Assembly (NCBI GenBank): GCA_964019695.1
Contig: OZ026530.1
Span: 36,256,835-36,320,834, forward strand
DNA from: Loripinus fragilis
Taxonomy: Eukaryota; Mollusca; Bivalvia; Lucinida; Lucinidae
DNA length: 64,000 nucleotides
Reading direction: 5' to 3'
Position numbers and translations under genes: made by a program. The notes below the pieces were generated by a model that saw only the letters and a list, made by a program, of their open reading frames with translations, had not been told where the DNA came from and did no database searches. Shown here piece after piece: positions 16,519-63,697 of the stretch (positions are counted from its first letter, which is position 1; every line of letters begins with the position of its first letter).

Positions 16519-16661
<143 letters not shown>

Positions 16662-20152: not shown

Positions 20153-21481
20153 CGAGGGGTGTTCATTATTTATTGCAACATGGGTTCTAAAACATAAAGG
20201 ATTAGTCCTTTACCTCAAAACTCTAGTGCATCCCTTCAAAATACTCATCCTTTGAACAAATACAAAGTTTAAGTCATTTACTTCATATCTGGAAAGCTTC
20301 GGCATAGTCTTTCTTAGGTACACCCTTAAGACACTGAAACAATGCTGCCTCAACAGCCTGTTTTGAGTGATATCTCCGACCCTCGAGAGTTATTTCAGAC
20401 ATGGAAGCAAGAAAAATCACATGGGGCTAAATCTTGTGCTTAAGGTGGGTGCGGGAGGATTGTCAAGCCTTTCTTCTCCACGAACGCGAGCGTTTCTTTT
20501 GAGGTGTGTGCTGGCAAAATGTCCTGTAAAAGGGTAGGGCTTTGTAGACAGAGCCTAGGGCGAGACTTCTTCAAGTAGTTTTCGAACTTTTTCATAGCTA
20601 ATCGTCGAAAGAGTTTCCCAGTAACCGTTTTACCACGGGGAATAGGTACTTGAACTGTCTCACCGGGACTGTTAAAGAAGATAGCATACATGACCTTCTT
20701 CATACTTGTAGTACGTTTTGCAATGGAATGTCTTCTTACATTTTTGGTTGCCCATATTTTGTTGCTACATTTTCTTGTGGACTGGTAGAAGTTTCTAGAT
20801 GTTTCATCGACTGTCCAGTTATTAGAAAATGTCCTCTGATTAAATTGAGGATATTTTTTAAGTATTTTTTACGGGCAATCAAAACACGACCTCTCTATTG
20901 GCCTTCCAGCAGTGAATTGGGAATCCAACTAGCAGCAATACAGCTAACTCGTATTTTTTCTTCGAAATCTTATATCTTGATCCCGTCGATCTGCACAAGC
21001 ATCTAGCTACTTGATGAGTTGTCATTCTTGCATCAATCTTCAACAGAACAATTACCTTGTCAGTTATTTGAGAGGTGACAACACTTGCAGGCCTGCCTCT
21101 GCCAGGCGCACTGTCAACCGTCTCTATTCCAGACTTAAAGCGTTTAATCCACCTGGTAACAGTTGAATACGATGAAGTAGATGCCCATAAGCGGAACAAT
21201 TTCGTTTAATATAGCTCTAGCACTAATTGCAAGTTAATATCAAGTTTTTTATATATCCTCTAATTTCAGCACTGATCTCTTAAGCCATGATTTTATACAG
21301 TCTATATGAATGACCTCACTTCCAAAGCGTGTAGCACAAAAACTAATGCACCGATTGAGACAATACTGGTATCCAAGGATAGATAAAAGATTGAAGAATT
21401 ACCTGTGTTAGACTTCATGGGAATTTCGTGCATAGCGTGGGAATTACGGTGGCAGTTGCAATAAATAATGAACGCCCCTCG
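20153..21481 (-). mobile_element. Decayed mariner-like element
   Basis: A DNA transposon of 1329 bp has 27-bp terminal inverted repeats (CGAGGGGTGTTCATTATTTA...; one mismatch between ends) and is flanked by TA on both sides. Transposase pieces are read on the minus strand in several frames. The helix-turn-helix part (about 21199-20940) shows SYSTVTRWIKRFKSG and a PGRGRP hinge. The catalytic part (about 20703-20440) shows LLQDILPAHTS, the usual second Asp block with its Asn changed to Ile, and ILPHPP. A shifted frame farther on keeps LAPCDF, the third Asp block of the DD34D family. Frameshifts and stops make it inactive. TA target, length and motifs fit mariner well. Confidence 0.92.
20340..21200 (-). 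pseudogene. Mariner transposase pseudogene
   Basis: In working mariners the transposase is about 345 aa, binds the terminal repeats through two helix-turn-helix motifs and cuts with a DD34D active site. Here the reading frame is broken at least between the DNA-binding and catalytic segments, and again before the third Asp. The region between (about 20880-20705) is badly decayed. The terminal repeats remain recognisable, so it might still be mobilised in trans, but nothing shows that it is. Confidence 0.85.
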
Positions 21482-22033: not shown

Positions 22034-22204
<171 letters not shown>

Positions 22205-45200: not shown

Positions 45201-48200
45201 TGCACACCGGATAAGCATAACTGAAATTTTACCCTGGGAGAGAAAATCTTATCTTACCCAGTAGTGAGCAAGAAAAAGAATCCATTAATCGTGTGAGGGT
45301 AGGGTAGAAAAATCCGTCCCTCGGGATCACCATTTGTCATCACTCGGCAAGCCTGGTGATGCCAAACTGTGATCCTCGGGATGGATTTTTCTATCCTACC
45401 CTCACACTCATGATAGATTCTTAATATTATAAATATTTTCTCCCGCATCATTTTTAATATATGTGTCAGGCGCACAAAAAACATTTCATTTATATGGTTC
45501 TTTTGAGTACCAGCAACATATGTTGGTTGAGAAATAAGGAAAAACTGCTTTGTTACACACTCTTAACCCTTAAAGCGTCAATTAAGACTGCAGCAGACGA
45601 CAAATTTTGCACCATCTTTCCTAATTTTGACAAAAATAAGATATGATATTTCATGAGAATCGTCTGCCAGCAGACGATTCTCATGCAAATATCATGCCTT
45701 ATTTGTTATTTAGAAAAAAAACACAGCAAAATTTGATATTGTCGTCTGCTGCAAATTATAGGTGGCGCTTTTAGGGGTAAAAACTAAAGGCCTGTATATG
45801 TATTAGTGTTTACCTTTTGACATTCTCCCATGCAGACTTCAACTGTACAAGAGAAGGACACATCAACTTCTGGATCGCCTTGCAAGTTTGTTGGTTGGAA
45901 GGCGCGAAATGTCGAGGATATATCACCTGCAGACATATGCTCAAAATTCGGGAACAGTTCTTCATCTGTTGAGCATCTGTCAGTTGTGAAAATACCTTGT
46001 AAGCAACAGTACTATAGAATACATTTTTTGTCAACAATGATGAAATTGTTTTGTCGACAACTAAAATACCTGACATGGCAAACTGATGATATCAAACCAA
46101 GGCCTACAAAATGGTTACCATAATCAATTAGAACACATATTTATAAAATAGAATGGATTTTCATTGATGTTTATAATCACATTTATGCTTTGACAAAATT
46201 AGTATAATATATAAGATAAATACAAACAGTCTCATTACATATTATACCAGTATACACCTCTAAAAAGCAATATAATTTGGTTCTAGGAAATATAACAGCT
46301 AAAATGTCATTTATGGACAATATTTGAGACAGCTCTTGAAATATTTGCAAATTATTACAATACAAATGTAGTATAACTGTATCTGGGTTGACTGTATCAT
46401 TTCTGTGGATGAGTTCATATCATAGAATCTCACCAAACGGTGAGCACCCAGCATGTACCGAAGATACTGAGAATATCCACGAGATGTGTTCAAACACCAG
46501 ATCACGTTCTTTTATAATAATATTTCAGTGAATTTTGTATTTAAAATAAGGAATGCACACTAAAATTTAACGTAAATTTTCCTATTATGACGTAGTAATA
46601 CACCTGAGTCCATTTTACAAATGACTCATAAGACCTTCGTAACACAGAGACATAGGGTGAGCCTTGTTTAAGAAGTCATATGTTTGGTATTGAAGTCTGT
46701 ATTTGGTACCCGGAGAACAATGAGTTCCAGAGTAGTTTTATAATAATGCATTATTCCAATGGCCTAGTACAAATAATGAGTAAACGTTAGAATCATCTGA
46801 AACAACATACGTACTCTTCCCTAACCAAAGAAATCAAAGACGCTGTGCATTCTTTAGCTTTGATGTCAAAGTCCCCTGCAAAGATAACAACATCACTTGA
46901 AAGTAAATGCCATGCGCGGATCCAGAAATTCCGCCGGGGAGGGGGGGGGGGAGGTCCTGAAAACGTTTTCTTCTTCTTTTTAGTCAACAACCTATTTCAC
47001 AGAGGGACTTAAGGACCTGCCACTAGTGGGGGGTCTGTACCAGCATTTCTAGGAAACCTATAACCGCATGTTCTATTTGGAAATTATTTAAGCAATTTGG
47101 AATGCACAATAAAGGATCTTCAAAAGTTAATAATTTTGAAATAAAGACGGATAATGATATCATCTCAGATGACCTAGACACAGCTAATGTATTTAGTGAG
47201 TATTTTGTAAACATTCCATCTAAGCTTAAAGAGCCAATACAACCATCCAATTTTGAACTTCTTCATAATTTTGTTGATTCTAAATTTAATGATAACACAA
47301 ACTTTACTATTCCTTTTGTAAACAGATCGTTTGTGAGTAATCATTTATCTGGTATGGATGCCACTAAGGCAACAGGGTTAGATTGCATAGGACCAAGATT
47401 ATTAAAGATTGCTTCGAATGTTTTAACACCTTCAATTACATATACAATATATAAAAGCATAGAGTCTGGAGTTTTTCCATGTACATGGAAAAATGCAAAA
47501 GTTAACCCAATCTTTAAAACTGGAGTCAAAGATAGCGTAAATAACTACAGGCCTATTTCAATACTGCCAACTCTTTCTAAGATAATTGAAAAAATGGATT
47601 GCAACAAAACTTATTTAAATAAGTACCAACTTCTTCATAAAAACCAAAGTGGTTTTCGTAAAAATCACTCAACTGAATCAGCTCTTATACTCATGACAGA
47701 TACTTGGTTAAAAGCTATCAATGGGGGTTAATTGGTTGGGTGTGCCATGATTGATTTCAGAAAAGCGTTCGATTTGGTTGATCATAAATAACTTCTTAAC
47801 AAATTGGATATTTATAGGTTCAGTGCTTTGAGTTGTCATGGTTTAAGTCGTAGCTAAGTTACAGAACTCAACAAGTTGTAATAAATAATTCAAGTTCCGA
47901 TATTGGTGATGTTATTTGCGGTGTCCAACAGGGATCTATTTTAGGTCCTCTTTTATTTCTGCTGTTTATAAATGATCTACCCCTTTCATTGAAGAACTCA
48001 CCAATATCAGTCGACTTATATTCAGATGATTCAACTTTATATAGTACTTCTTTAGATAAGTGTTCCTTAGAAACAACTCTTCAAAAGGCGTTGGATTCAG
48101 TTTACACCTGGTGCTTAGAAAACGGTATGCTCATCAATACTGAGAAGACGAATTTGATGTTAATTGCCAGTCGACAAAAAAGAAACTCTTTAATTGATAG

Positions 48201-49229
48201 CGACCTAAAAATTACATTCAATGATATAGATTTAAAAATTTCTAGTGATGAGAAAATTTTAGGCGTTCATGTAGATCAAAATGTCTGGAATAATCATTTC
48301 GGCACATATCTAAAAAGATATCATCGCACCTTTGATTATTATCGCAGATTAGAACATATCTTAATGTTCAACATAGGCTTTTAAACTACAATGCATATAT
48401 TTAATCACATATTGAATATTGTTGTGTAGTATGGGGAAATTCGTGCAATTTAAATGCATTTAAAATTGAAAAGTTGCAAAGAAGGGCGTACAAGCTTATT
48501 CTAGGAACTGATTATACAACTCTAGACGCTGCGCGCAAACAATTACGTATTTTATCATTTGAAGAAACTGTTTTTATACACAAAGCAAAAGTTATGTGTA
48601 AAATAGCTAATAATACCGCACCAATTTACTTAACAGATTTATTTCAAATGAGAGGTAATGACAGTTATTTGAATAATTCACATTTAAATTTATGGTCAAC
48701 GTCAAATAAGAATTTTCTTATACCAAAGCCTAAAATAAGATTATTCAAAAACAGTTTGTCTTATTCTGGTGCATTAGTGTGGAATAGCGTTCCTTTATGG
48801 ATAAAAAAATTCTAGTACAATTGAGTCATTTACAATAAACTGCTTGCAGTGGATGAAATTAGACTGTGTATCTTAAACAAGTCGCAATATGAGAAAACCA
48901 GATGTTTCTTAGATGAAAATTAAATGCGCAGATGGGCTGTGCTGTCGCGCAGGATGATCGGCGCATATTATTTTCATTCCTTAGCTAGTATAACTTCTTT
49001 CTCTATTTTCGAAAATGCTTATGTGTCCGCCTGACTTACTTGGCTGAGTAGACAAGCATGAGTCTGCCTGGTCAGAAAACCTAAACACTGGTTCTCTCAA
49101 GCTGTGAAATACCTATTTTATTTGTTTTGTTCTTTTTATTGTTGTATAATGACTTGTTTTCATGCAAATTTTGAGGGCCTCGGGGAAGATTGGCCTAGCC
49201 AACGGAGCTACCCTCGTTAAATGAAGAAA

Positions 49230-52200: not shown

Positions 52201-55200
52201 ATGGTTTCCTCCCCTAGACCTATCATTTTGAGATGATAAAACTGCAACAGTTGATGACCAAGCAGGCCCCCAGATGTAAGTGTGTGATTTTCTCATTCCA
52301 AACATATGTTGTAGGTACACAGCAGAACTTTCTCAATGAGACGATTCTTTTCAGCACCATGAACAAATGTTAAAACTGATGGATAAGAAATTTACAATTT
52401 TACGCTGAACATATCTATCTTGACCTGTGGCCTATGGCACCATAAGAAAGAGGCATGGAACACTAATAGTCATATGACAGACAGAAAGTAGCTGTAACAT
52501 AATACCCTGTCTGTTGGGGTATGTACCCAGGTACCTGACCCTGGGAATGCTTTAACATTGGAGGTTGTATGGTCAAGCATTGGGTGTGATTAAGTCTCTC
52601 TTTTACTATAATTGCAGTATCAACTAGGATAAAACTGACTCCACAAGACCTACGATTGGAAGCCTCCATTTCTTTTCTTAATTCCGTTAGATAGAAAAGC
52701 AATATTTTGGATAATGATTACAATCTGATATTGATAATAATTTATGGGTTACCCCACCTTCCTCTTGTATTCCTACGCGGTATCTTTCTCTGTAATTGGG
52801 TAATTACTAGCTTATGATGGAATATGTAAGGAGGGAGGCGGGATAAGCATGGAAAAAGAAACTAATATATATTGTCTAAAAGATTGAGTGGGGGTTGTCG
52901 CTTGAATCTTGAGATGTAAACACGTATTTTAAAGAGATAAGAAATAAATTGTGGCACGATCATGTGTTGTTACTAATCACGGCCTTGGGCTGGAATCCTA
53001 GATTCATGGCCCTGTAGATATTCTCCGGGACCTAGCCATAGCCAGAGTCCACTTGCTGGCTATGGTACAACCGTTGAACTGGTGCCGTTGACTAACGGAT
53101 GTTTAATGAATCTTGGGTGGAACCATGTTCAAGTGGATAGTACATTCCTTCAAAAACAAGGGAATATGTTTTTTAAAAATTCCATTATGTACCATGGTGA
53201 ACGTTCTTTGCACCACATGGAATATACAAACCTTTTTGGATAAAAGAAGAGTTGCTACGGATATTAAAGTCAGGAAACATATACATTCTGACTTGTGATT
53301 TTGTGGCTTATGAAATTTTTGTCACATTCCAACCATCATTACGGGGATTAGTTAGAACGTGCTGACATTGTTCCTGGTGTTGCTGTCGTGCTGACATTGT
53401 TCCTGGTGTTGCTGCCGTGCTGACATTGTTCCTGGTGTTGCTGTCGTGCTGACATTTCGTTTTACTGTTAATCTTGTCCCTGGTGAGTACCGTTTATTCT
53501 TCCTTCAAGCAATATGGCTGATGTTGTCGAACAGCTGACCAGTTTTTTTCATGCCATTTCTGTGCAGTTAGGGTCACTCACCACGGCTGTCAACAGCCAA
53601 AGTGTTGTGAATATTGTGCCGACATTTGCGGGAAACCCATCCCATTTTAAAAATTGGATAAAAGCAATCCAACGCTACGAGATCCTAACTGGGGTAGACG
53701 ATGAAAAATTGAAAGGTATCACATTACAAAGCGCGCAGGGGCCCGTTGCTGATTTCATAGCCCGATGGATGCGAGACCATCAAAACCAGACGTGGGCCCA
53801 CTTAAAAACAGAACTTCAATCACGCTTTGGTGAGATAACCGATAGGAGTATCGCGTTTAGTATGTTAAGGCGTGTCCGCCAAGAAAGAAATGAGAGCGTC
53901 CAAATTTATGCGGAACGGCTGCTGGCGATAGCAGAAGATGCATTTACTGGTCAGGACCAAGCTGACCTGCCCACTATTGAGCGTCAGCTTGTTGGCTTTT
54001 TCATAGACGGGCTGGCATACGACTATCTTAAGCTAAAAGTCATGCGGGAAAACCCGGACCGATTACAGGCTGCTGTTCATATTGCGATGACAGAACAAAA
54101 TCTACAACGCAAATTTAACTTACGTACAGGTCGCGAAGATCGTACAGTAGAGCCCATGGAAGTAGATCATGCACGGCCTGCCCGATGTCAACTGTGCAAA
54201 CGCAACGGCCATGAGGCGCGTGAATGTAGAACCTTTAGACGCGAACGCGCAGAAGCAGTTAACATGACTAGACAGTTTTCTGGAAGTCGTGGTCGCGACC
54301 AAAGACAAATGCCGCGGCAATCTTCTTTGATCTGCTGGTTCTGTTATGAACCAGGACACAAAAAAGTAGACTGCGAAAAGTTTAAAAGATTAAGGGCACG
54401 TGGCACGCAGGAGGCTCCTGCAAGGCTGACAAAACCCTCGGAAAACATGTAGACCCTCTTGTCAAAAATGGGACAAGTGAACAGGGGGGTCCAAAGCAAA
54501 CATTTAGAGCATGCAACATTAATCCCAGAAACAATGCAAGCAGTATCTTAATGAAAATTGGCAATCAGAAATATCGATGTTTGGTTGATACTGGAGCTGA
54601 AAGGACTTTGCTAAGTCGGCGAATTTATAATTCTCTTCCTTAACCACCTCAATGGCTTTTAAAGAGAAAAAAGAAAATTGCAAATGGCTCTTCTGAGACT
54701 GTACCGCCCATGGAAATGACACAGAGAATGAATTTGCATAAGCTACCCAAACCTGAACCATCCAGTAGTAGCACTCAGTCTTACTCCTTTGAGGGGATCA
54801 AACATTTGGATCCTAATGGCCCTTTAAGCATGGAGACCTCCAGTGATAGTGACACAATTAGCTATGACTATGAAATTTCCCCACAGCCTAGTCCAGACCA
54901 GCCAGGCATGGTTTCTTCAGTAGGCATTGACGAGCAATACAATGATAGCCCTGTTTTCGTAGAGACTCTTTCCTCTGTAAAGCACTCACCTACGTCTGAA
55001 AAGTGTGACAGACGTGAAAATATGAAAAAGTTGCTTGAGGCTATATCCGCCATTCTCTAAATGTTTTGTCCCAATATTGTTTTTCCTATAATATAATAAA
55101 TGCAGCATTTGAATTAAGTTCCTTTATTAATAAATAGCTGTTGTTGATCAATGGATCTAATGGCTGATGGAACGATGATCCTTTCATTGACTGTGCTCTT

Positions 55201-58200
55201 TGATTTGCATAATTATACAAATTGTTTTGCTAGATGTATAAGCAAATCTGACGGAACTACTTTTATGTCGTTATGAATTAATCTTATTGTAATGAAAATG
55301 CTGTTTTTGTTATGGCCACTAGTTGAGCTTAAATGCTAAGGGATAGAAAATCACTTTCTAGGCTTTGTGGTAATAAATCCTCTTAAATTAATTTGGCGTA
55401 TGGTTAATGCCACCAATGTTTTAATATTAGATGTTGTAAATAATAATAGGGTCGTGCCATATAATATTCATATATCCATGAATTGGTGCTTATGTTTCAA
55501 TTGAATGGGAATTAAGGGATTTGCCTCAGAAATGATGGTATTTTCCTTATTTTTCAGGCAAAATGATGAGGTTCCTGATTAGAATCGTCAGTCTACTCTT
55601 GTTAGGTTTCCATTTGAAAGATCAAAATATCTATGAAAACGTAGTGTTTCAAGAAATCAATCAAGTAAGATTGACCAGATCAGAATGGAAGATTGCCTGC
55701 GTTTTCGAAATACAAACGATTTTAGATTATGTGAAATCAATTGCAAACGACATAGGTCGGGTGCACAAGGTCATTGCAAATGTTCAGAGAGACTATGCAC
55801 AAAGTGCCAAAGCAACAACAATATTTGAAAATGAAGATTTATTGTTGGGTATGCGTGATCATTCCGGGTTTTCACAAACTTTTGATCAAATGTTAAAAGA
55901 AATTGCAGTACTTACATCTGCGTATAAGGGATTGCAAAATGAATTGAAAAGTTATGCGTTTCTCAGTGCATCTTCACGTGAACGCCGTAGCCTCATTCCG
56001 ATCGTCGGGCGTGTCCTTTCTGGGGCCTTTGGCTTGGCGACGACAGGTCAGGTTCGAGCCCTGCGTACAGGCATTCAAACCCTCTCTGATAACCAAGAAA
56101 AGATTTACCATCTTGTAGAAAACCAGATATCTATGATCAATGTCTCCCGGAAATATATTAAAGAAAACCGACAAACAATTAATAAGTTAATTATAGGAGT
56201 ACACCAAATCGATATGAAAGTCAATAATATCAGCCAAATATTAATTACCGATTTGAATACAATAGGTCGTTTTGTCCAGATTTATTCTCAGCTTAATTTG
56301 GCCTTGCAATCAATAAAGCGAATGATAGATAGCGCACAGAGATATGTCGATCATTTAAGATTAGAGCTTTCGTTCCTCGCAATAGGTCATATTTCACCAA
56401 ATTTACTTTCGCCAGAAGAACTTAGTAAAATACTTCACCAGGTTAGAAGCAAACTCCCGGCGGCTTTTAGACTTCCTACACATCCTAGTCGTAAGTTATG
56501 GTCCTATTTTCGCACCCTGAATTGTGCAGCAATTATTGATAATAAAAAGTTAATTATCATTGTAACCATACCCTTGCTAGACAATGATGAAAGTTACCAG
56601 TTGTATGAGATACACAATTTGGCTTTCCCTGATCCTTTCACACCCTCTCCAAATTATGAGTCTAGCATGATGGCTCTCTATCGACTTGAGACTGAAGCCC
56701 TTATGGTGAATACGCACCGTACCGAATATATATTCATTACTAGAGAGGAATTGTATTCCTGCTCTCATTCAGAAGGACATTACTGCAATGCCCAACATGC
56801 AAGATTACCAATTTCAAAGTCAAGAACATGCGTAATAAGCTTATTCATGAAAAACTCTGATAAGATCAAACGATATTGCGTGCCAGAAATATACACTAAT
56901 GTACATTTACCTCGTGCTGTGAATTTGAAAGATGGAATTTATGCTGTGTCAACCAAAAATCCCTTTTCTTTACACTTAACGTGTCAAGCTCCGCCCAGTA
57001 GCTCAGAGATACAAGTTAAACCTCCATTAACGGTTGTTAACCTTGAAATGGCTTGCTCTGCGCACAGTCAAGAAATTACGTTAATGCCCTATTTTGCTGC
57101 TCAAACAACAGTTCCCACACAAAAGGAGCCATTCTTTGTGCTTCTTCAAGAGACAAATTTCTCGGAAGTAAAAATATGGCAACCCCTTGTTAGTTCGTTG
57201 AAAAACTTCTCTTCGGTTAATCTTCCTGAAACCTTAAAGAACGTAGATAAAATTTCAATGACTGAATTTCTAGACCGGTTAGGATCTCTTCAGCAAGTTG
57301 AAATTGAAACAAAATGGCATTTTCCATTCTGGGCAAAAATTGCAGCTGGTATAGCTGGCATAATCTGTTTAGTAATAATAATTAAATATCGACAACAAAT
57401 TGCCCTTTGCTTGCGGCGAATTGTTAAACGGGAAACCTTACGGGTACAAGAGCCAAATGAGACGATTCACAACAATGTGGAAGCTACCAAATCTGAGGAC
57501 TTGGGTAGCCAAAAGACGTTACAAACCCAGACGAGAAAGTTAGAATCCATTTATCCAAGGCTGGATTTAGCTTCAATGCCCGGAACTGGACCTGAAGCTA
57601 CGACCTCATCGACATAATAAAGACTTGTGTGTTAACAGTCTTCATGAATATCTATTGTTTTAGTGCAATGTCGTGTCTGATATATTGTGCTGTTGGAATA
57701 ATTATTATTCACTTTCTGAATGACTGGATTTATGGAATCAGTATTGATCATATCGTGGTCAGTGACGGACAAGAAAGAATAATAACAGTGTATCCTATAG
57801 TGATGTTTTATTGATTCCAATAAATGCCTTGAGACAATGAACTACATTGATATTACAGAGGCTAAAAGTTGCATAAACTTATGATTATATTGTTCATGTT
57901 CATGTTGATTATGTTATATGTTGTACTTACATGTATCCGCTTCAATTCATGGATAATGAAATTTCTTTAAGTCTATAAGGGATGCTACAGTTTGATTAGA
58001 GCCATGTCATTTAAAAATGGCATGCCTCTTTTAACACAGGGGGGTGATGTAACATAATACCCTGTCTGTTGGGGTATGTACCCAGGTACCTGACCCTGGG
58101 AATGCTTTAACATTGGAGGTTGTATGGTCAAGCATTGGGTGTGATTAAGTCTCTCTTTTACTATAATTGCAGTATCAACTAGGATAAAACTGACTCCACA

Positions 58201-60787
58201 AGACCTACGATTGGAAGCCTCCATTTCTTTTCTTAATTCCGTTAGATAGAAAAGCAATATTTTGGATAATGATTACAATCTGATATTGATAATAATTTAT
58301 GGGTTACCCCACCTTCCTCTTGTATTCCTACGCGGTATCTTTCTCTGTAATTGGGTAATTACTAGCTTATGATGGAATATGTAAGGAGGGAGGCGGGATA
58401 AGCATGGAAAAAGAAACTAATATATATTGTCTAAAAGATTGAGTGGGGGTCGTCGCTTGAATCTTGAGATGTAAACACGTATTTTAAAGAGATAAGAAAT
58501 AAATTGTGGCACGATCATGTGTTGTTACTAATCACGGCCTTGGGCTGGAATCCTAGATTCATGGCCCTGTAGATATTCTCCGGGACCTAGCCATAGCCAG
58601 AGTCCACTTGCTGGCTATGGTACAGTAGCCAGCTCTCTCTTTCTCAGCGAGATGATTGCAAAATTAACGTCAATTACAACAACGTCTTTGATTTTTACAC
58701 CATACTTATATACTGTAAATCCGGAAATTTTCGTGAGGGTTTTATTTTCGCGAAATTGCGAAGTTTCGTGAAAATAAAATCCTCGCGAAATGGAGAAATC
58801 ATTCTATTGGTAAATCATGCCCTAGTCGCGAATTTTAAACGTCGCAAATATGTCTTTTAACGCCATTTGCGAAAATAAAATTCTCGCGAAAATTTCTCAG
58901 CGAGATGATTGCAAAATCAAAAAGAACGCCAATAACAACGTCTTTGATTTTTACACCATACTCACTCCGGATAGGCGGCAATCAAAAACGCCCTTACCAA
59001 TCGACGAACGCGGAACAAAAACCGCTAGAAACAGTGTTTTCGATTGCCATTTGTCGCCAGTCGGGCGACAAATGACAATCAAAAACTCTGTTTCTAACGA
59101 TTTTTGATCTACGTTCGTCGATATTGTTAACGTTTTCGATTGCCGCCTATCCGGTGTGATACTTACATATTCAATGCTACACAGATCAAAATCAAACTGT
59201 ATGTTCATCTGTGTTGAAGAAGTAGTTCTCCGGCATGACGAGCTCCGACCTTGGATATATATCAATCCGCCATCAGCAGCATTGTCCAACAGTATCACAA
59301 CCATCCGCGAATTACAACTCTTCACTGTTACTGAAAATGTAGAATTGCATTGCTAATCACTGAGTAGTGGATAGCTTAGCTTTTGTATGTCCCCAGGGTA
59401 TTTCTATACAGAGGGTTAGGAATCTTTACCATGAGATTTCCAACAATGTGGCATTTTGACATGTGTAGACTCAGACGAGCCTCTGCAGCCTCTTTTTAAG
59501 CTAAGAAACTCCAAATGGTGCTCAGCCAGTAGCTTAACAATCATAATCAAACGACTAGCAAAGGCTCTGATCAGTCTGCGTGTATGCGCAGGCTGGTCTG
59601 AGGCTTTGCTGGTCGCACATACCAAATTGTTGAAAATCTCATGCACTGGCTCGTATGTTCAAAACTCCTGTATGCCAGAGTCTATTTACTCACTCTCCAA
59701 ATGTAAGTTTAAAATTTACCATTAATGTCAAATTCTACTTAAATATGGTTGAATAACCATTTCTTTACCATATCAAACATGCTGAATAACACAGTCTAAT
59801 CTTTCAACATCATTGTCATTTGTTGAAACGGGTTCTGTAGGTCAGAGTCCATTTACTCACACTCAAAATGTACATTCAAAATTCAACATTAATGTCAAGT
59901 TCTACTTAAATACGGTTGAATAACCATTTCTTTACCATATCAAACATGCTGAATAACACAGTCTAATCTTTCAACATCATTGTCATTTGTTGAAATGGGT
60001 TCTGTTTATTGTATACCAGTAGGTCCCTTGCATAAATGTACGTTATTGCATGGTTTGTGCGTATGTAGATAATCCACGAACTTTAGCGAGTGGATTATCT
60101 CCCGTGCATACGCACAGCCATACAATAACGTTCTTATTGCAACAGCATGCACGTGCACTTTGTAAATTGCGAGATATTTGATGTAAAAAATTTATGATAT
60201 CGCTCAAAAGTGCAATAAATATAACTTATTGCGCCCAATGTCTAACACAAATACCTCGAAATGTACAAAGTGCAAATGCATGATAGTGTAACAAGCAAGT
60301 TATTGTATGGTTTGCGAAAGATCGTGGATTAATTCCCCGTACAGACGCACAACCCGTACAGTTACTTATAAATATCCCTTGTACAAATATACACTAAACA
60401 GTAGTCCTGTTGCTGATTTGTATATAAATGTACTTGTGGAAATACAGTAAAACCTGTGTAAAATGGCCACTCAAAAATGGACAAAACAAAGGTCTTTATG
60501 ACAAATGATAGCTTACCGAAGGTTAAAAGTATTACAGAATGATCTCCATGGAGCATTGTGCAATACTTTTGACCTGCATTAAGCGATAATTGGTCTTGAA
60601 TACCAATATTTGGATTTTTTGAGAGTGGCCGTTTTACACATGTTTTACTGTACAACAGTATGAAAACTAATTCATTGATATGTATATACTAAAACAACAT
60701 ACCATTTGGCGAAAACATTCCATTCAGATGATGAATCTGGGACAGCAGTATACAGCTCAAAAGTATTAATCCTTTGCCATCCATCAT
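38145..60787 (-). CDS. ZP gene 1: membrane ZP-domain protein, 10 coding exons, 406 aa
   Basis: Coding exons in order are 60787-60703, 59330-59167, 51904-51780, 50186-50041, 46875-46815, 45976-45814, 44510-44384, 43436-43309, 40549-40358 and 38174-38145. Lengths sum to 1221 nt, all introns are GT-AG and phases agree throughout. The product has a signal peptide (about 1-23). ZP-N (about 30-125) has Cys34, 61, 79 and 109. ZP-C (about 135-255) has Cys183, 195, 237, 242, 246 and 251. A basic cleavage site RKKR lies at 259-262, a membrane helix at about 302-325 and an 80-residue cytoplasmic tail follows. ZP proteins are cut by furin-like proteases and polymerise outside the cell, for example in egg coats, cuticles or apical matrices. 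Which of these applies here cannot be told. Intron 2 holds an LTR retroelement and intron 4 a LINE, both antisense to the gene. A 5'UTR exon is implied because an acceptor precedes the ATG. Confidence 0.9.
38188..38392 (-). repeat. tRNA-derived SINE, copy 4
   Basis: The reverse complement has CAGTGGCTCAGTGGTAGAGT, a B box (GGGTTCGAGAC), and the CCTTGAGCAAGACACATTTA and AACCCAGGTAGACCCGTCCC body. It lies in intron 9 of ZP gene 1, 14 bp upstream of exon 10. Confidence 0.88.
38398..38690. repeat. ATTATTCACTATTCATT-type simple tandem repeat
   Basis: Irregular iterations of CATTATTCACTATTCATTA fill nearly 300 bp of intron 9, with linkers such as TTTTGGCT and AAAAAGGT. Confidence 0.8.
38827..38893. 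repeat. Constant-arm mini-hairpin, core class GCAGCATGATGCTGC
   Basis: The arms GCAAATAGTGGCAACCC and GGGTCTGCACTGTTTGC enclose a perfect inner palindrome, GATGAAATGCAGCAT and its complement. Confidence 0.85.
39932..40000. repeat. Constant-arm mini-hairpin, core class CTGCTCCTAAAGGAGCAG
   Basis: The outer arms are diverged (GCAAGCACTATGAACCC, CCATATTGTTTGC). The inner palindrome is exact. Confidence 0.75.
40086..40315 (+). repeat. Family P1 MITE, full copy
   Basis: It begins GAGCCATGACATGAGATTTCC, has the core GTGCATACGCACAGTCTGGTC and ends GTAAATCATATGTGA. It ends about 43 bp beyond the donor of exon 9, inside intron 9. Confidence 0.85.
40358..40549 (-). CDS. ZP gene 1 exon 9 (cytoplasmic tail)
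   Basis: The acceptor ATTTCTCTTGCAG precedes 64 codons in phase 0; the donor is GTAAGC. It encodes a hydrophilic tail (SSPPDDVYTGRRLSDRG..., PTPPQKRRESV) with many Ser, Arg and Pro residues and no recognised domain. Confidence 0.85.
40921..40984. repeat. Constant-arm mini-hairpin, core class CTGCTCCTATATAGGAGCAG
   Basis: The outer arms are CAAACAGTGTAG and GGGTCTACACTTATG. The inner palindrome is perfect (20 bases plus GA/TC). It lies in intron 8. Confidence 0.85.
41555..41796 (+). repeat. Family P1 MITE, full copy with poly-C/poly-A leader
   Basis: Preceded by a C run and an A run (41513-41551). The core is CTGCGCATATGCGCAGTCTG. Confidence 0.88.
41946..42139 (-). repeat. Family P1 MITE, shortened, reversed
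   Basis: The order of motifs is inverted, and a segment around TCTGAGTCTACAC is reduced. It is followed directly by an AT microsatellite. Confidence 0.8.
42143..42229. repeat. (AT)n microsatellite
   Basis: A pure AT tract of about 87 bp. Confidence 0.98.
42481..42530. repeat. Constant-arm mini-hairpin, short form
   Basis: The outer arms are ACAGTGCATACCCTGAT and GTGTCTTCACTGTTTG. The inner part is reduced (AGAATGCTATAT). Confidence 0.6.
42548..42750 (+). repeat. tRNA-derived SINE, copy 5 (best preserved)
   Basis: The A box CAGTGGCTCAGTGGTATAGT and B box GCGGGTTCGAGCCTCACC are intact. The body and tail (GGCGTTAAGAATCAAATCAT) follow. Antisense to ZP gene 1, in intron 8. Confidence 0.92.
42910..43060. 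repeat. Long hairpin repeat
   Basis: Arms TTTTCTCATTTGGGGAGGT, ATATTGTCG and GTTTTACGG are matched in inverse order on the right. Confidence 0.7.
43309..43436 (-). CDS. ZP gene 1 exon 8 (membrane helix)
   Basis: The acceptor TGTATTTCAG precedes two bases completing Ser291 and 42 codons; the donor is GTATGT. It encodes an acidic stretch with Cys297, then IAGSVIAITTVTLLFSWIVC as the membrane helix and a basic stop-transfer end (MSKLKQLGK). Confidence 0.88.
43807..44022 (+). repeat. tRNA-derived SINE, copy 6
   Basis: Same structure as copy 5, but the B box is mutated (GGGTTTTAGCC) and the segment TGTGTCCTTGAGCAA is duplicated in tandem. It lies in intron 7. Confidence 0.9.
44384..44510 (-). 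CDS. ZP gene 1 exon 7 (end of ZP-C, cleavage site)
   Basis: The acceptor is TTGTATTACTACAG. The exon begins AICGEIIGWG, then RKKRD, the expected basic cleavage site after ZP-C, and an acidic linker. The frame requires a phase-1 end. The only site giving this and a clean join to exon 8 is AAAAAT|GTACAG, a weak donor. The exon body is secure; its exact 3' edge is less so. Confidence 0.8.
44643..44960. repeat. Direct repeat pair, about 229 bp apart
   Basis: A block of about 87 bp (ACTCAATAAAACTGAGCCTG..., ATTTCTGAAGGATCCG) at 44643-44730 is repeated at 44872-44960 with substitutions. It is in intron 6. Confidence 0.7.
45275..45422. repeat. Long palindromic MITE-like hairpin
   Basis: Arms AATCCATTAATCGTGTGAGGG, TAGGGTAGAAAAATCC and CTCGGGATCAC pair with the right side. 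The loop carries CATCACTCGGCAAGCCTGGTGATG. A diverged relative is at 6311-6452. Confidence 0.8.
45564..45780. mobile_element. TTAA palindromic MITE, copy 1
   Basis: About 213 bp. Ends are TTAACCCTTAAAGCGTC and GGCGCTTTTAGGGGTAA. The inner arms include GCAGCAGACGACAA, and the centre is TGAGAATCGTCTGC and its complement. Flanking TTAA is intact on the left and changed to GTAA on the right. Confidence 0.85.
45814..45976 (-). CDS. ZP gene 1 exon 6 (ZP-C core)
   Basis: The acceptor TTCACAACTGACAG precedes one base plus 54 codons; the donor is GTAAAC. It carries CSTDEELFPNF, STFRAFQPTN, and FSCTVEVCMGECQ. The Cys-x4-Cys-x3-Cys group and the Phe-x-Ala-Phe strand are hallmarks of the ZP-C subdomain. 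Confidence 0.92.
46140..46760. other. Intron 5 sequence, no exon supported
   Basis: A minus-strand open frame at 46311-46505 has no matching acceptor, and skipping it keeps the ZP frame intact. It looks like a dispersed repeat. Confidence 0.5.
46815..46875 (-). CDS. ZP gene 1 exon 5 (ZP-C)
   Basis: A 61-nt exon between acceptor GTTATCTTTGCAG and donor GTACGTAT. It encodes GDFDIKAKECTASLISLVRE, giving the first ZP-C cysteine in its usual Cys-x-Ala-Ser context. Both phases fit its neighbours. Confidence 0.88.
46905..47035. repeat. GCGGATCCAG-end fragment with poly-G
   Basis: The sequence GCGCGGATCCAGAAATTC followed by a G run resembles both ends of the element at 63707-63928. Confidence 0.4.
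47040..49274 (+). mobile_element. Decayed CR1/Jockey-type LINE, 5'-truncated
   Basis: The element begins inside ORF2 (about 47063, SIWKLFKQFG) and lacks the endonuclease. It ends in a TTAC tandem tail at 49230-49274, as in CR1-like LINEs. It lies in intron 4 of ZP gene 1, antisense to the gene. Confidence 0.9.
47063..48815 (+). pseudogene. LINE reverse transcriptase pseudogene
   Basis: Reverse transcriptase blocks are in order: NNYRPISILPTLSKIIEK and QSGFRKNHSTESAL (frame of 47102), DFRKAFDLVDH (motif A, 47753 onward, same frame after a TAA at 47729), then in a shifted frame GVQQGSILGPLLF (motif B), LYSDDSTLYS (motif C, with YSDD in place of the usual Y/F-A-DD). A second shift leads to the C-terminal region at 48474-48815 (RRAYKLILG, ALVWNSVP). 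There are at least two stops and two frameshifts, so it is inactive. The family is assigned from motif order and tail, not from a search. Confidence 0.88.
49280..49920. other. Intron 4 sequence with decayed SINE tail
   Basis: About 49560-49680 resembles a degraded SINE body (CAACCCAGGAAACATGATTG, GGACGTTAATGATAAACTAA). No exon seen. Confidence 0.4.
50041..50186 (-). CDS. ZP gene 1 exon 4 (ZP-N/ZP-C linker and first ZP-C strands)
   Basis: The acceptor TTCTTTCGTACAG precedes one base, 48 codons and one further base; the donor is GTAGAT. It encodes RPIVRMRMLTD, then GGEITLDDNVKMSLTLED, the hydrophobic-alternating start of ZP-C with the usual Asp-Asn-Val turn. There is an N-glycosylation sequon at Asn133. 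Confidence 0.88.
50290..50870 (+). repeat. SINE-like conserved repeat, copy 2
   Basis: It contains CTGACCGTTCCAAGGCGGTA, TGTGGTCACCTGCGGGGAAA, GGGCTGACCTCTTGGCTCT and CATTGTATCGATTCCTGATC. In intron 3 of ZP gene 1. Confidence 0.7.
51565..51770 (-). repeat. SINE-like conserved repeat, copy 3
   Basis: The reverse complement carries GTGGTCACCTGCTGGGAAAG and GGCTGACCTCTTGGCTCTC. Homology to copy 2 reaches to within about 15 bp of the exon 3 donor. Confidence 0.7.
51780..51904 (-). CDS. ZP gene 1 exon 3 (second half of ZP-N)
   Basis: The acceptor GTATTGTTTTGCCAG precedes 41 codons plus two bases; the donor is GTAAGT. It encodes DSKFRVIVQRNAYYQTGHDK and VIPVMCLVD, the last ZP-N strands with the fourth ZP-N cysteine. 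Start phase 0 and end phase 2 fit exons 2 and 4 exactly. Confidence 0.88.
51950..52165. mobile_element. TTAA palindromic MITE, copy 2
   Basis: TTAA on both sides. The centre TCATGAGAATCGTCTGC/GCAGACGATTCTCATGA is a perfect palindrome. It lies 46 bp from exon 3, in intron 2. Confidence 0.9.
52290..52392. repeat. Short repeat with ACATATGTTGT motif
   Basis: The segment AACATATGTTGTAGGTACAC continues to AGACGATTCTTTTCA and AAAACTGATGGATAAGAAA. A related copy is at 51357-51470. Confidence 0.55.
52488..52492. repeat. Target site duplication, left (GTAGC)
   Basis: GTAGC directly precedes the 5' LTR and is repeated at 58625-58629. Confidence 0.93.
52493..53069 (+). repeat. 5' LTR
   Basis: 577 bp, 99.8% identical to the 3' LTR by base-by-base comparison. 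A TATA-like TATATATT lies at 52866-52873 and AATAAA at 52943-52948, a plausible U3-R layout. An open frame inside it is carried by both LTRs and is not credited. Confidence 0.95.
52866..52873 (+). promoter_or_regulatory. Candidate TATA box in 5' LTR
   Basis: TATATATT about 70 bp upstream of AATAAA. The transcription start is not known. Confidence 0.45.
53080..53097 (+). promoter_or_regulatory. Candidate primer binding site
   Basis: TGGTGCCGTTGACT starts ten bases after the LTR with the expected TGG (complement of tRNA CCA). An alternative is TGGTACAACC at 53063, overlapping the LTR end. The matching tRNA is not identified. Confidence 0.4.
53358..53459 (+). repeat. 29-bp tandem repeat in the leader, about 3.5 copies
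   Basis: Units starting CGTGCTGACATTGTTCCTGG begin at 53358, 53387, 53416 and 53445 (partial). It lies between the LTR and gag, where packaging signals usually sit. Confidence 0.92.
53478..53488 (+). promoter_or_regulatory. Splice donor upstream of gag
   Basis: CCCTG|GTGAGTA, with the intron starting at 53483, is a near-consensus donor 31 bases before the gag ATG. Pairing with the acceptor at 55557 would remove gag and the protease stub. Confidence 0.7.
53514..54452 (+). CDS. gag: Gag polyprotein (capsid and nucleocapsid), intact
   Basis: A 312-aa structural protein that forms the particle and binds the element RNA. A capsid-like region (about 35-200) has the retrotransposon gag pattern: PTFAGNPSHFKNWI, then W-x-x-L motifs and RVRQERNESVQIYAERL. 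Two CCHC zinc knuckles follow: Cys225-Cys228-His233-Cys238 and Cys274-Cys277-His282-Cys287, separated by an Arg-rich linker. The start is the first ATG after the leader. The frame is uninterrupted up to TAG at 54450, and the protease-like frame overlaps it at -1. Relatives are Ty3/Gypsy Gag proteins; two knuckles recall retroviral nucleocapsid. It shows no internal damage. Confidence 0.93.
   Translation: MADVVEQLTSFFHAISVQLGSLTTAVNSQSVVNIVPTFAGNPSHFKNWIKAIQRYEILTGVDDEKLKGITLQSAQGPVADFIARWMRDHQNQTWAHLKTELQSRFGEITDRSIAFSMLRRVRQERNESVQIYAERLLAIAEDAFTGQDQADLPTIERQLVGFFIDGLAYDYLKLKVMRENPDRLQAAVHIAMTEQNLQRKFNLRTGREDRTVEPMEVDHARPARCQLCKRNGHEARECRTFRRERAEAVNMTRQFSGSRGRDQRQMPRQSSLICWFCYEPGHKKVDCEKFKRLRARGTQEAPARLTKPSENM
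54386..55060 (+). pseudogene. Protease stub plus pol remnant (-1 frame, one stop)
   Basis: This open frame lies at -1 relative to gag and overlaps it by 67 bp. It contains the retropepsin active-site motif LVDTGAE (DTGA codons at 54587-54598), followed by TLLSRR. A TAA at 54641-54643 interrupts it. The same frame resumes with an ANGS block (54680), typical of the flap region, then runs into an unrelated Ser/Pro/Glu-rich tail ending at 55060. The tail might be the C-terminus of the lost integrase or a new sequence. The second conserved protease block, and all of reverse transcriptase, RNase H and integrase, are absent. I see no canonical slippery heptamer in the overlap. It is not expected to be a working enzyme. 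Confidence 0.82.
55061..55557 (+). other. Non-coding spacer before env
   Basis: About 500 bp, AT-rich, with no long frame. It ends in the env splice acceptor. It may be residual sequence from the deletion of pol, or an original spacer. Confidence 0.5.
55541..55560 (+). promoter_or_regulatory. Splice acceptor for env mRNA
   Basis: TTTTCCTTATTTTTCAG ends at 55557, five bases before the env ATG at 55563. A strong polypyrimidine tract and its placement support a spliced env transcript. Confidence 0.75.
55563..57617 (+). CDS. env: Envelope glycoprotein, F-like class I fusion type, intact
   Basis: A 684-aa membrane protein that would sit on particles and fuse membranes. A hydrophobic signal region (about 4-16) begins it. 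A furin-type site RERR (139-142) is followed by a hydrophobic, Gly/Ala-rich fusion peptide (SLIPIVGRVLSGAFG) and a long heptad-rich helix (about 165-265). A later block has SPEELSKIL and IIVTIPLL, as in envelopes of insect errantiviruses and baculovirus F proteins. Cysteines cluster at about 400-440 and 474-498. The membrane anchor is about 590-607, followed by a cytoplasmic tail of about 75 residues. There are N-glycosylation sequons, e.g. Asn193, Asn222 and Asn532. The frame has no stops or shifts. Homology is judged by motif layout, not by a search; infectivity cannot be inferred. Confidence 0.88.
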   Translation: MMRFLIRIVSLLLLGFHLKDQNIYENVVFQEINQVRLTRSEWKIACVFEIQTILDYVKSIANDIGRVHKVIANVQRDYAQSAKATTIFENEDLLLGMRDHSGFSQTFDQMLKEIAVLTSAYKGLQNELKSYAFLSASSRERRSLIPIVGRVLSGAFGLATTGQVRALRTGIQTLSDNQEKIYHLVENQISMINVSRKYIKENRQTINKLIIGVHQIDMKVNNISQILITDLNTIGRFVQIYSQLNLALQSIKRMIDSAQRYVDHLRLELSFLAIGHISPNLLSPEELSKILHQVRSKLPAAFRLPTHPSRKLWSYFRTLNCAAIIDNKKLIIIVTIPLLDNDESYQLYEIHNLAFPDPFTPSPNYESSMMALYRLETEALMVNTHRTEYIFITREELYSCSHSEGHYCNAQHARLPISKSRTCVISLFMKNSDKIKRYCVPEIYTNVHLPRAVNLKDGIYAVSTKNPFSLHLTCQAPPSSSEIQVKPPLTVVNLEMACSAHSQEITLMPYFAAQTTVPTQKEPFFVLLQETNFSEVKIWQPLVSSLKNFSSVNLPETLKNVDKISMTEFLDRLGSLQQVEIETKWHFPFWAKIAAGIAGIICLVIIIKYRQQIALCLRRIVKRETLRVQEPNETIHNNVEATKSEDLGSQKTLQTQTRKLESIYPRLDLASMPGTGPEATTSST
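57629..57814 (+). other. Small hydrophobic frame between env and 3' LTR
   Basis: A 61-codon frame starts 12 bases after the env stop and has a membrane-helix-like stretch (CLIYCAVGIIIIHFL). There is no independent support; it may be chance. Confidence 0.25.
58034..58047 (+). promoter_or_regulatory. Polypurine tract
   Basis: ACACAGGGGGGTGA directly precedes the 3' LTR, the expected plus-strand primer site. Confidence 0.8.
58048..58624 (+). repeat. 3' LTR
   Basis: 577 bp, one difference from the 5' LTR (C at 58451). AATAAA at 58498-58503 would direct polyadenylation. Confidence 0.95.
58625..58629. repeat. Target site duplication, right (GTAGC)
   Basis: Matches 52488-52492. Confidence 0.93.
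58643..58963. repeat. 67-bp direct repeats flanking a CGCGAAA-rich element
   Basis: The segment TCTCAGCGAGATGATTGCAA ... TTTGATTTTTACACCATACT occurs at 58643-58709 and 58895-58963. Between them is a palindromic, TTTTCGCGAA-rich element (CTGTAAATCCGGAAATTTTC ... ATTCTCGCGAAAATT). Confidence 0.75.
58969..59155. mobile_element. Palindromic MITE adjoining the exon 2 donor
   Basis: The ends are TCCGGATAGGCGGCAATC and its complement, with inner arms ATCGACGAACG/CGTTCGTCGAT and a centre CATTTGTCGCC/GGGCGACAAATG. It stops 11 bases from the splice donor of ZP gene 1 exon 2. Confidence 0.85.
59167..59330 (-). CDS. ZP gene 1 exon 2 (first half of ZP-N)
   Basis: The acceptor CTACATTTTCAG precedes two bases completing Val29 and 54 codons; the donor is GTAAGT. 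It encodes TVKSCNSRMVVILLD, GGLIYIQGRSSSC and FDFDLCSIEY with three ZP-N cysteines. Its paralogue is at 823-939. Confidence 0.9.
59429..59656 (-). repeat. Family P1 MITE, reversed
   Basis: Core CTGCGTGTATGCGCAGGCTGG; the ends are CATGAGATTTCCAACAATG and AAAATCTCATGCACTGGCTC. In intron 1 of ZP gene 1. Confidence 0.85.
59670..60006. repeat. 168-bp tandem duplication in intron 1
   Basis: Two adjacent copies (59670-59838, 59839-60006) share GAATAACCATTTCTTTACCA and ATCTTTCAACATCATTGTC with few changes. Confidence 0.88.
60048..60128. repeat. Long hairpin repeat (family with 4188-4289)
   Basis: The arms ATGGTTTGTGCGTATG and CATACGCACAGCCATAC enclose GATAATCCACGAACTTTAGCG and a matching inner arm. 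Confidence 0.7.
60370..60700. other. Intron 1 remainder, nothing recognised
   Basis: A short inverted pair (CAGTAAAACCTGTGTAAAATGG at about 60446 and its complement at about 60629) suggests a small element of about 205 bp, without further support. Confidence 0.4.
60703..60787 (-). CDS. ZP gene 1 exon 1 (signal peptide)
   Basis: ATG ATG directly follows an acceptor-like CTCTTTTTTGCAG; 28 codons plus one base; donor GTATGT. It encodes MMDGKGLILLSCILLSQIHH, a signal peptide with a good hydrophobic core. The phase-1 end matches exon 2 and the gene 2 signal exon. Confidence 0.85.

Positions 60788-63420: not shown

Positions 63421-63697
<277 letters not shown>

What the first reader, a model, noticed from the sequence alone, without database searches (positions are those of the whole stretch)
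52493..58624. A young LTR retroelement that kept gag and env but lost pol
Seen: identical-length LTRs with one mismatch in 577 bp, a 5-bp target duplication, primer and purine tract candidates, an open 312-aa gag and an open 684-aa env, but no reverse transcriptase, RNase H or integrase and only a broken protease stub. Known: non-autonomous LTR elements usually lose all genes or keep gag; keeping env while losing pol is unusual. Inference: it moves with enzymes from a full-length relative, while supplying its own coat and envelope. It could be a helper-dependent or interfering lineage.
Basis: partly seen in the sequence, partly recalled or inferred. Interest (0 to 1): 0.88.

Follow-up and report, generated by a model that had tools for sequence, protein, structure and literature searches.

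The report
One pol-deleted copy of a retrotransposon
This is a young retrovirus-like jumping element that lost its enzyme genes in one clean deletion between two short repeats; the four close relatives found in the same genome still carry those genes, so it looks like a one-off defective copy and not a new helper-dependent lineage.

Summary
Window 52493-58624 is an LTR element with 577-bp LTRs (1 mismatch), a 5-bp TSD, open gag, open env and no RT, RNase H or integrase.

The element's own genome (1.99 Gb) holds four close relatives with 98-99% identical LTRs. All four carry the deleted pol segment, with no stop in it. Relative to copy C2 the window lacks 3603 bp, in frame, between two copies of a 10-bp direct repeat. 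Of five copies found with the junction region, only the window is continuous: 1 of 5. A test for decay of the pol remnants was inconclusive.

Env belongs with baculovirus-F/errantivirus-type envelopes through its relatives. Gag, pol and env of the family are under strong purifying selection. Verdict: an ordinary defective provirus of an env-carrying Ty3/gypsy-like family, probably in a mollusc. Genome searches with gag and env did not complete.

The parts
52488..52492 (+). left target-site duplication GTAGC
52493..53069 (+). 5' LTR, 577 bp
53080..53098 (+). primer-binding-site candidate, starting 10 nt after the LTR; its first 9 bases look like the complement of a tRNA-His 3' end (tRNA recalled, not tested)
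   Evidence: region identical in 4 of 4 copies with a 5' end
53358..53456 (+). 29-bp minisatellite in the leader; a 27-base core occurs 3, 3, 1 and 4 times in window, C2, C3 and C6
53480..53488 (+). candidate splice donor (GT at 53483) upstream of gag
   Evidence: GTGAGT kept in 4 of 4 copies
53514..54452 (+). gag, 312 aa, open
54386..54640 (+). protease stub with DTGA motif, in another frame than gag, ends at an in-frame stop
54641..54650 (+). deletion junction: the one remaining copy of a 10-bp direct repeat, holding the in-frame stop; 3603 bp of pol missing relative to copy C2
54644..55060 (+). C-terminal tail of Pol (138 codons), open, in frame with the protease stub
55061..55562 (+). A+T-rich non-coding spacer with a candidate splice acceptor (AG ends at 55557) just before env
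   Evidence: acceptor kept in 5 of 5 copies
55563..57617 (+). env, 684 aa, open; furin-like basic site followed by a stretch like a fusion peptide; YP.LDL motif near the C-terminus
58038..58047 (+). polypurine tract candidate
   Evidence: kept in 5 of 5 copies
58048..58624 (+). 3' LTR, 577 bp, one mismatch to the 5' LTR
58625..58629 (+). right target-site duplication GTAGC

Best explanation
A young, defective copy of a low-copy, envelope-carrying Ty3/gypsy-like retroelement, born of a one-off deletion. Shown: relative to copy C2 an in-frame 3603-bp stretch (most of protease, all of RT, RNase H and integrase) is missing between two copies of a 10-bp direct repeat, one of which remains; the junction was found in this copy only. 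Inferred: reverse transcriptase jumped from one repeat to the other while copying a full-length RNA, so the copy was born defective and was inserted by enzymes of its full-length relatives. It could still give Gag and, by splicing, Env, but could not mature, reverse-transcribe or integrate by itself.
For: The middle region 54453-55562 finds 5 copies in the genome, only the window continuous. The four others carry the pol segment with no stop in it; C3, C6 and C218 are 98.0-98.6% identical to C2 there, and in all four the pol frame runs open past the place of the junction. The C2 frame has RVP, RVT_1, RNase H and Integrase_H2C2 above cut-off and rve below it. Endpoints lie in a 10-bp direct repeat, 3603 bp apart, a multiple of 3; random breakpoint pairs at least 1 kb apart in the same stretch reach 10 bp of homology in 6 of 200,000 draws. 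No possible left breakpoint starts with GT, so it is not a copied GT-AG splice product (read). LTR pairs differ at 1/577 here, and 0/580, 0/579 and 1/577 in C3, C2 and C6. Informative sites change partners along gag and env, as in recombination between co-packaged RNAs.
Against: A later loss in chromosomal DNA would look the same. The 116-aa tail ORF cluster counts 2 member sequences, so a second copy or allele with the junction may exist elsewhere. In this copy the Pol tail has 4 nonsynonymous and 1 synonymous private changes, against 5 and 14 in gag plus env (one-sided Fisher 0.047), a weak hint that the tail was already useless for a while; but the tail changes in other copies look alike (8 to 4 pooled over C2, C3 and C218, p = 1.0), and the protease stub has 0 of 188. 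Genome counts are lower bounds by the tool's statement. Genome searches with gag and env did not complete (last tries).
Confidence: 0.6

Rival explanations
1. Post-integration deletion: a full-length provirus inserted here and later lost 3603 bp by slippage or annealing between the two repeats in host DNA. It is a one-off too.
For: The same junction is expected; the LTR mismatch shows that some time has passed since insertion.
Against: Short time available, and a 10-bp repeat 3.6 kb apart is weak for host recombination (general knowledge). Template switching in reverse transcription as the commoner route is recalled; the one search for it found no held paper.
Confidence: 0.22
2. Helper-dependent lineage: the pol-less form replicates as a family on enzymes of full-length copies, supplying its own Gag and Env.
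For: Relatives with near-identical LTRs and open pol segments exist. Gag and env are open and PBS, PPT and splice candidates are kept. Copies recombine. The Pol tail of this copy shows 4 nonsynonymous to 1 synonymous private changes. The tail ORF cluster has 2 members. In cattle, defective ERVK elements that keep parts of gag and env are inferred to be mobilised in trans (PMC10924933, abstract and passages).
Against: Junction in 1 of 5 copies. Protease stub without private change in 188 columns, and the tail pattern is not special to this copy. The cattle defective form makes up 85% of its clade; here there is no sign of amplification.
Confidence: 0.13
3. Assembly artefact: the assembler skipped 3.6 kb between the repeats.
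For: The junction lies exactly at a short repeat, and reads cannot be seen here.
Against: The repeat is only 10 bp, and the scaffold is 72 Mb long in a 685-contig assembly, so long reads are likely. The in-frame stop at the junction is in none of the four other copies.
Confidence: 0.04
4. A host-domesticated Gag or Env locus whose pol was lost because selection keeps only gag and env.
For: Open gag and env; env dN/dS 0.04-0.08 in comparisons of this copy with three others.
Against: The same low ratio holds between the full-length copies, so it reflects the family's own replication. The LTRs are almost identical, so there was little time for selection on this locus.
Confidence: 0.01

Closest known systems
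Env-carrying Ty3/gypsy elements (errantiviruses, insect ERVs)
   Same: gag-pol-env order in the full-length relatives, candidate sites for a spliced env, furin-like site and an envelope related to the F type; such elements are reported as widespread across animals (Chary and Hayashi 2025, not held, seen only as cited in passages of PMC13172572 and PMC12859917).
   Different: This copy lacks RT, RNase H and integrase; the clade was not tested by an RT tree.
Bovine ERVK[2-1-LTR] D-type elements and koala RecKoRV
   Same: Central segment lost, flanks with parts of gag and env kept, competent relatives in the same genome (PMC10924933, passages).
   Different: There the centre is swapped for an old piece of retroelement; the cattle D-type has no intact genes and makes up 85% of its clade. 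This is a clean deletion in one of five copies.
IAP I-delta-1 elements of mouse
   Same: An LTR element named among trans-complemented pairs in PMC10924933 (passage).
   Different: I-delta-1 is multi-copy with another deletion; this detail is recalled, not checked.
Friend spleen focus-forming virus (recalled)
   Same: A replication-defective retrovirus that keeps gag and env while much of pol is lost.
   Different: Its env is altered and pathogenic in mice; here env is the ordinary family env. From memory; one search gave listings only.

Membership tests
Ty3/gypsy (Metaviridae) LTR elements | LTRs with TG...CA ends, 4-6 bp target duplication, PBS and PPT | tested here: met
   own 5-bp duplication in window, C3, C2 and C6; PBS is a candidate only
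Ty3/gypsy (Metaviridae) LTR elements | Gag of the Retrotrans_gag type with CCHC knuckle | tested here: met
   Retrotrans_gag E 6.9e-6, above cut-off; zf-CCHC below its cut-off, knuckles by eye
Ty3/gypsy (Metaviridae) LTR elements | Pol order PR-RT-RNase H-integrase | tested here: not met
   Not met in this copy; met in the C2 relative. The copy is therefore described as a defective derivative, not as a complete member.
Ty3/gypsy (Metaviridae) LTR elements | RT placement in a tree | not tested
   no reference RT set was aligned
Errantivirus-like (env-carrying) elements | Envelope of the baculovirus F / gypsy env family | tested here: met
   Indirect only: Baculo_F matched by 3 of 9 members of alignment A2, PF07253 by 1 of 9, the window's own Env by neither at E 0.01; the window Env aligns to P0006 over 98% at 30% identity, and P0006-P0008 bear PF12259
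Errantivirus-like (env-carrying) elements | Env made from a spliced RNA | tested here: inconclusive
   Candidate donor and acceptor conserved in 4 of 4 and 5 of 5 copies; no RNA data
Helper-dependent (non-autonomous) LTR lineage | Several copies share the defining deletion | tested here: not met
   1 of 5 copies, a lower bound; a second member of the tail ORF cluster is unplaced
Helper-dependent (non-autonomous) LTR lineage | A partner with the same LTRs and pol | tested here: met
   activity of the partners not tested
Helper-dependent (non-autonomous) LTR lineage | Movement in trans seen | not testable with these tools
   no population or expression data

The most novel reading that the evidence does not exclude
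The pol-less genome is a young satellite that has begun to move: it is packaged with full-length RNAs, adds Gag and Env to shared particles, and sits at other sites in other individuals (the unplaced second member of the tail ORF cluster would be such a copy, and the excess of nonsynonymous changes in its Pol tail the trace of cycles without pol).
Probability: 0.1. Interest if true: 0.55.

Novelty: new member of a known kind. Interest (0 to 1): 0.25.

Why it matters
It shows a defective copy next to relatives that still have pol, with the breakpoints readable to within a 10-bp repeat, in a low-copy, recently active, env-carrying family whose gag, pol and env are all under strong purifying selection. 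That makes it a clean example of how non-autonomous retroelements can start, probably in a mollusc, but it is not itself a new kind of system.

Tried and rejected
Scans of IMG/VR and of prokaryote genome contigs gave no relative; the env alignment was too diverse to scan with. No PDB relative of Env at E 1; Gag gave four weak matches, three to nucleocapsids, best E 0.11. The AlphaFold model of Env was poor (mean pLDDT 44.7), so no fold search was made. My simple scan found no canonical frameshift heptamer in the gag/protease-frame overlap, so how Pol is reached is open. A copied splice product as cause of the deletion was rejected because no possible left breakpoint starts with GT. Troyka elements were considered and rejected: they have 3-bp duplications and CG ends (PMC12440569, abstract). 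Paper searches used: (listings); they are no basis for saying that this element is unpublished. In PMC6238403 (mollusc LTR elements) the words env and envelope do not occur in the main text.

Full report
What is there. The element at 52493-58624 has two 577-bp LTRs with one mismatch, TG...CA ends and a 5-bp duplication GTAGC. Between them lie a leader with a 29-bp minisatellite, gag (312 aa, Retrotrans_gag), a protease stub that stops at 54641-54643, an open 138-codon frame, an A+T-rich spacer and env (684 aa).

The missing part. The window is G000:C19:36256835-36320834 in a genome of 1,987,113,829 bases and 685 contigs. The LTR finds 21 matches. Nine, including the window's two, are reported at 98-100% identity; they belong to the window element, to LTR pairs on C3, C2 and C6, and to one 3' LTR on C218, whose 60-kb contig ends inside gag. 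The other 12 matches are at 76-91%. Five of these 12 lie in the fetched stretches L015-L018 on C5, C1, C6 and C527, which matched the LTR but no internal piece of the element (L015 spans 8.5 kb, the other three 1.1-1.9 kb). The three on C10, the three near C6:60.85 Mb and the one on C165 were not fetched. The four close relatives carry the deleted part of pol: no stop in any of the four, and C3, C6 and C218 are 98.0-98.6% identical to C2 there. The C2 frame is 1425 aa with protease, RT, RNase H and integrase domains, rve being below its Pfam cut-off. Its last part matches the window's 138-codon frame, so that frame is the Pol tail.

The junction. Relative to C2 the window lacks 3603 bp (1201 codons) between two copies of a 10-bp direct repeat. 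In the same C2 stretch there are 20 pairs of repeated ten-base words 1.0-4.5 kb apart, and randomly drawn breakpoints share 10 or more bases in 6 of 200,000 draws, so the repeat very probably guided the deletion. A search with the 1110-bp middle region gives 10 matches that make up 5 copies. Only the window is continuous; in the four others the left part ends at position 196-198 and the right part starts at 190, or at 231 in C6. The in-frame stop at the junction is not in the other four copies, whose pol frames run open past that place. Against the one-off reading: the protein cluster of the 116-aa tail ORF has 2 member sequences, while the closest gag and env clusters count 28 and 36. What these cluster counts stand for (alleles, other assemblies, other species) is not known.

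Age. LTR pairs differ at 1/577 (window), 0/580 (C3), 0/579 (C2) and 1/577 (C6), each with its own 5-bp duplication. So the family was active recently; no absolute date is given because the host's rate is unknown.

Decay of the pol remnants. A lineage long without pol should show decay in the protease stub and the Pol tail. Compared over window, C2, C3 and C218, the window's private changes (nonsynonymous:synonymous) are 3:8 in 573 columns of gag, 0 in 188 of the stub, 4:1 in 370 of the tail and 2:6 in 2052 of env. Tail against gag plus env gives a one-sided Fisher value of 0.047 (0.039 with three copies); but the tail changes of C2, C3 and C218 pool to 8:4, not different from the window's 4:1 (p = 1.0), so the tail may simply be lightly constrained. 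With C6 included, the tail shows only 1:1 for the window in 338 columns, because columns lost in C6 drop out. The C218 tail is 2 bases longer than the window's, so its counts may include misaligned bases. The test is inconclusive; it no longer counts for the one-off reading.

Selection and mixing. dN/dS (Nei-Gojobori) is 0.04-0.08 in 6 of 6 env pairs among window, C2, C3 and C218, with 0.04 and 0.15 for the two parts of C6 env against the window; 0.03-0.16 in 6 gag pairs among window, C2, C3 and C6; and 0.07-0.11 in 6 pairs of the deleted pol segment. So Gag, Pol and Env all matter for the family's spread; env is not a passenger. Informative sites group the window with C218+C6, then C2, then C2+C3 along the compared part of gag, and change again in env, as expected from recombination between RNAs packaged together.

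Env. Eight proteins resemble the window's Env: five at 57-99% and three at 23-31% identity in the alignment. Baculo_F is matched by 3 of 9 members of the alignment and PF07253 by 1 of 9, but neither by the window's own Env. A basic cleavage-like site and the stretch after it are kept in all nine rows. The YP.LDL motif near the C-terminus is in the window and in P0001-P0004, with a related motif in P0006; P0005, P0007 and P0008 do not reach that part. Its likeness to late-domain motifs is recalled. Candidate splice donor and acceptor are kept in 4 of 4 and 5 of 5 copies, in line with the spliced env of insect ERVs (PMC12992720, passages).

How it works. Most likely reverse transcriptase jumped between the repeats while copying a full-length RNA, and family enzymes inserted the product (inference). 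After that the locus can at most make Gag and Env; with the protease cut, even Gag maturation would need a helper. Mobilisation in trans of such copies is inferred in cattle, where the defective form makes up 85% of its clade (PMC10924933, abstract and passages). Here there is no amplification in the searched genome.

Host. Of 49 Gag relatives, four carry a source name: one Shewanella and two Thiodiazotropha metagenome bins, probably contaminated with animal DNA (Thiodiazotropha as a clam symbiont is recalled), and one Lottia gigantea protein (P0038, 40%).

Judgement. A well-resolved but ordinary defective provirus of a recently active env-carrying Ty3/gypsy-like family.

Noticed in passing
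window 47027-48815, + strand: Broken reverse transcriptase in separate open stretches (RVT_1 E 1.7e-5, below its cut-off, and 9.2e-14; third stretch no match), probably a decayed non-LTR retrotransposon.
   Followed up: partly
window 20440-20868, - strand: Fragment resembling a Transposase_1 domain, E 1.4e-4, just below the Pfam cut-off.
   Followed up: partly
window, C-terminal part of env (ends 57617), and proteins P0001-P0004, P0006: A conserved YP.LDL-like motif near the Env C-terminus, resembling a late-domain or endocytosis motif (resemblance recalled).
   Followed up: no
window 53358-53456 and L004, L006, L007: The 29-bp leader minisatellite varies in copy number between element copies (core seen 1 to 4 times in four copies).
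   Followed up: partly
window 58640-59160: Direct and inverted repeats right of the element, perhaps a small inverted-repeat transposon.
   Followed up: no
window 63422-63695; 16524-16657; 22036-22201: Long perfect dinucleotide arrays, (CT)137, (AT)67 and (AT)83.
   Followed up: no
G000:C3:21509810-21511433 and G000:C6:72233100-72238659: Relatives C3 and C6 are interrupted by other inserts, about 1.6 kb in the Pol tail of C3 and about 5.6 kb in env of C6; the inserts were not identified.
   Followed up: no
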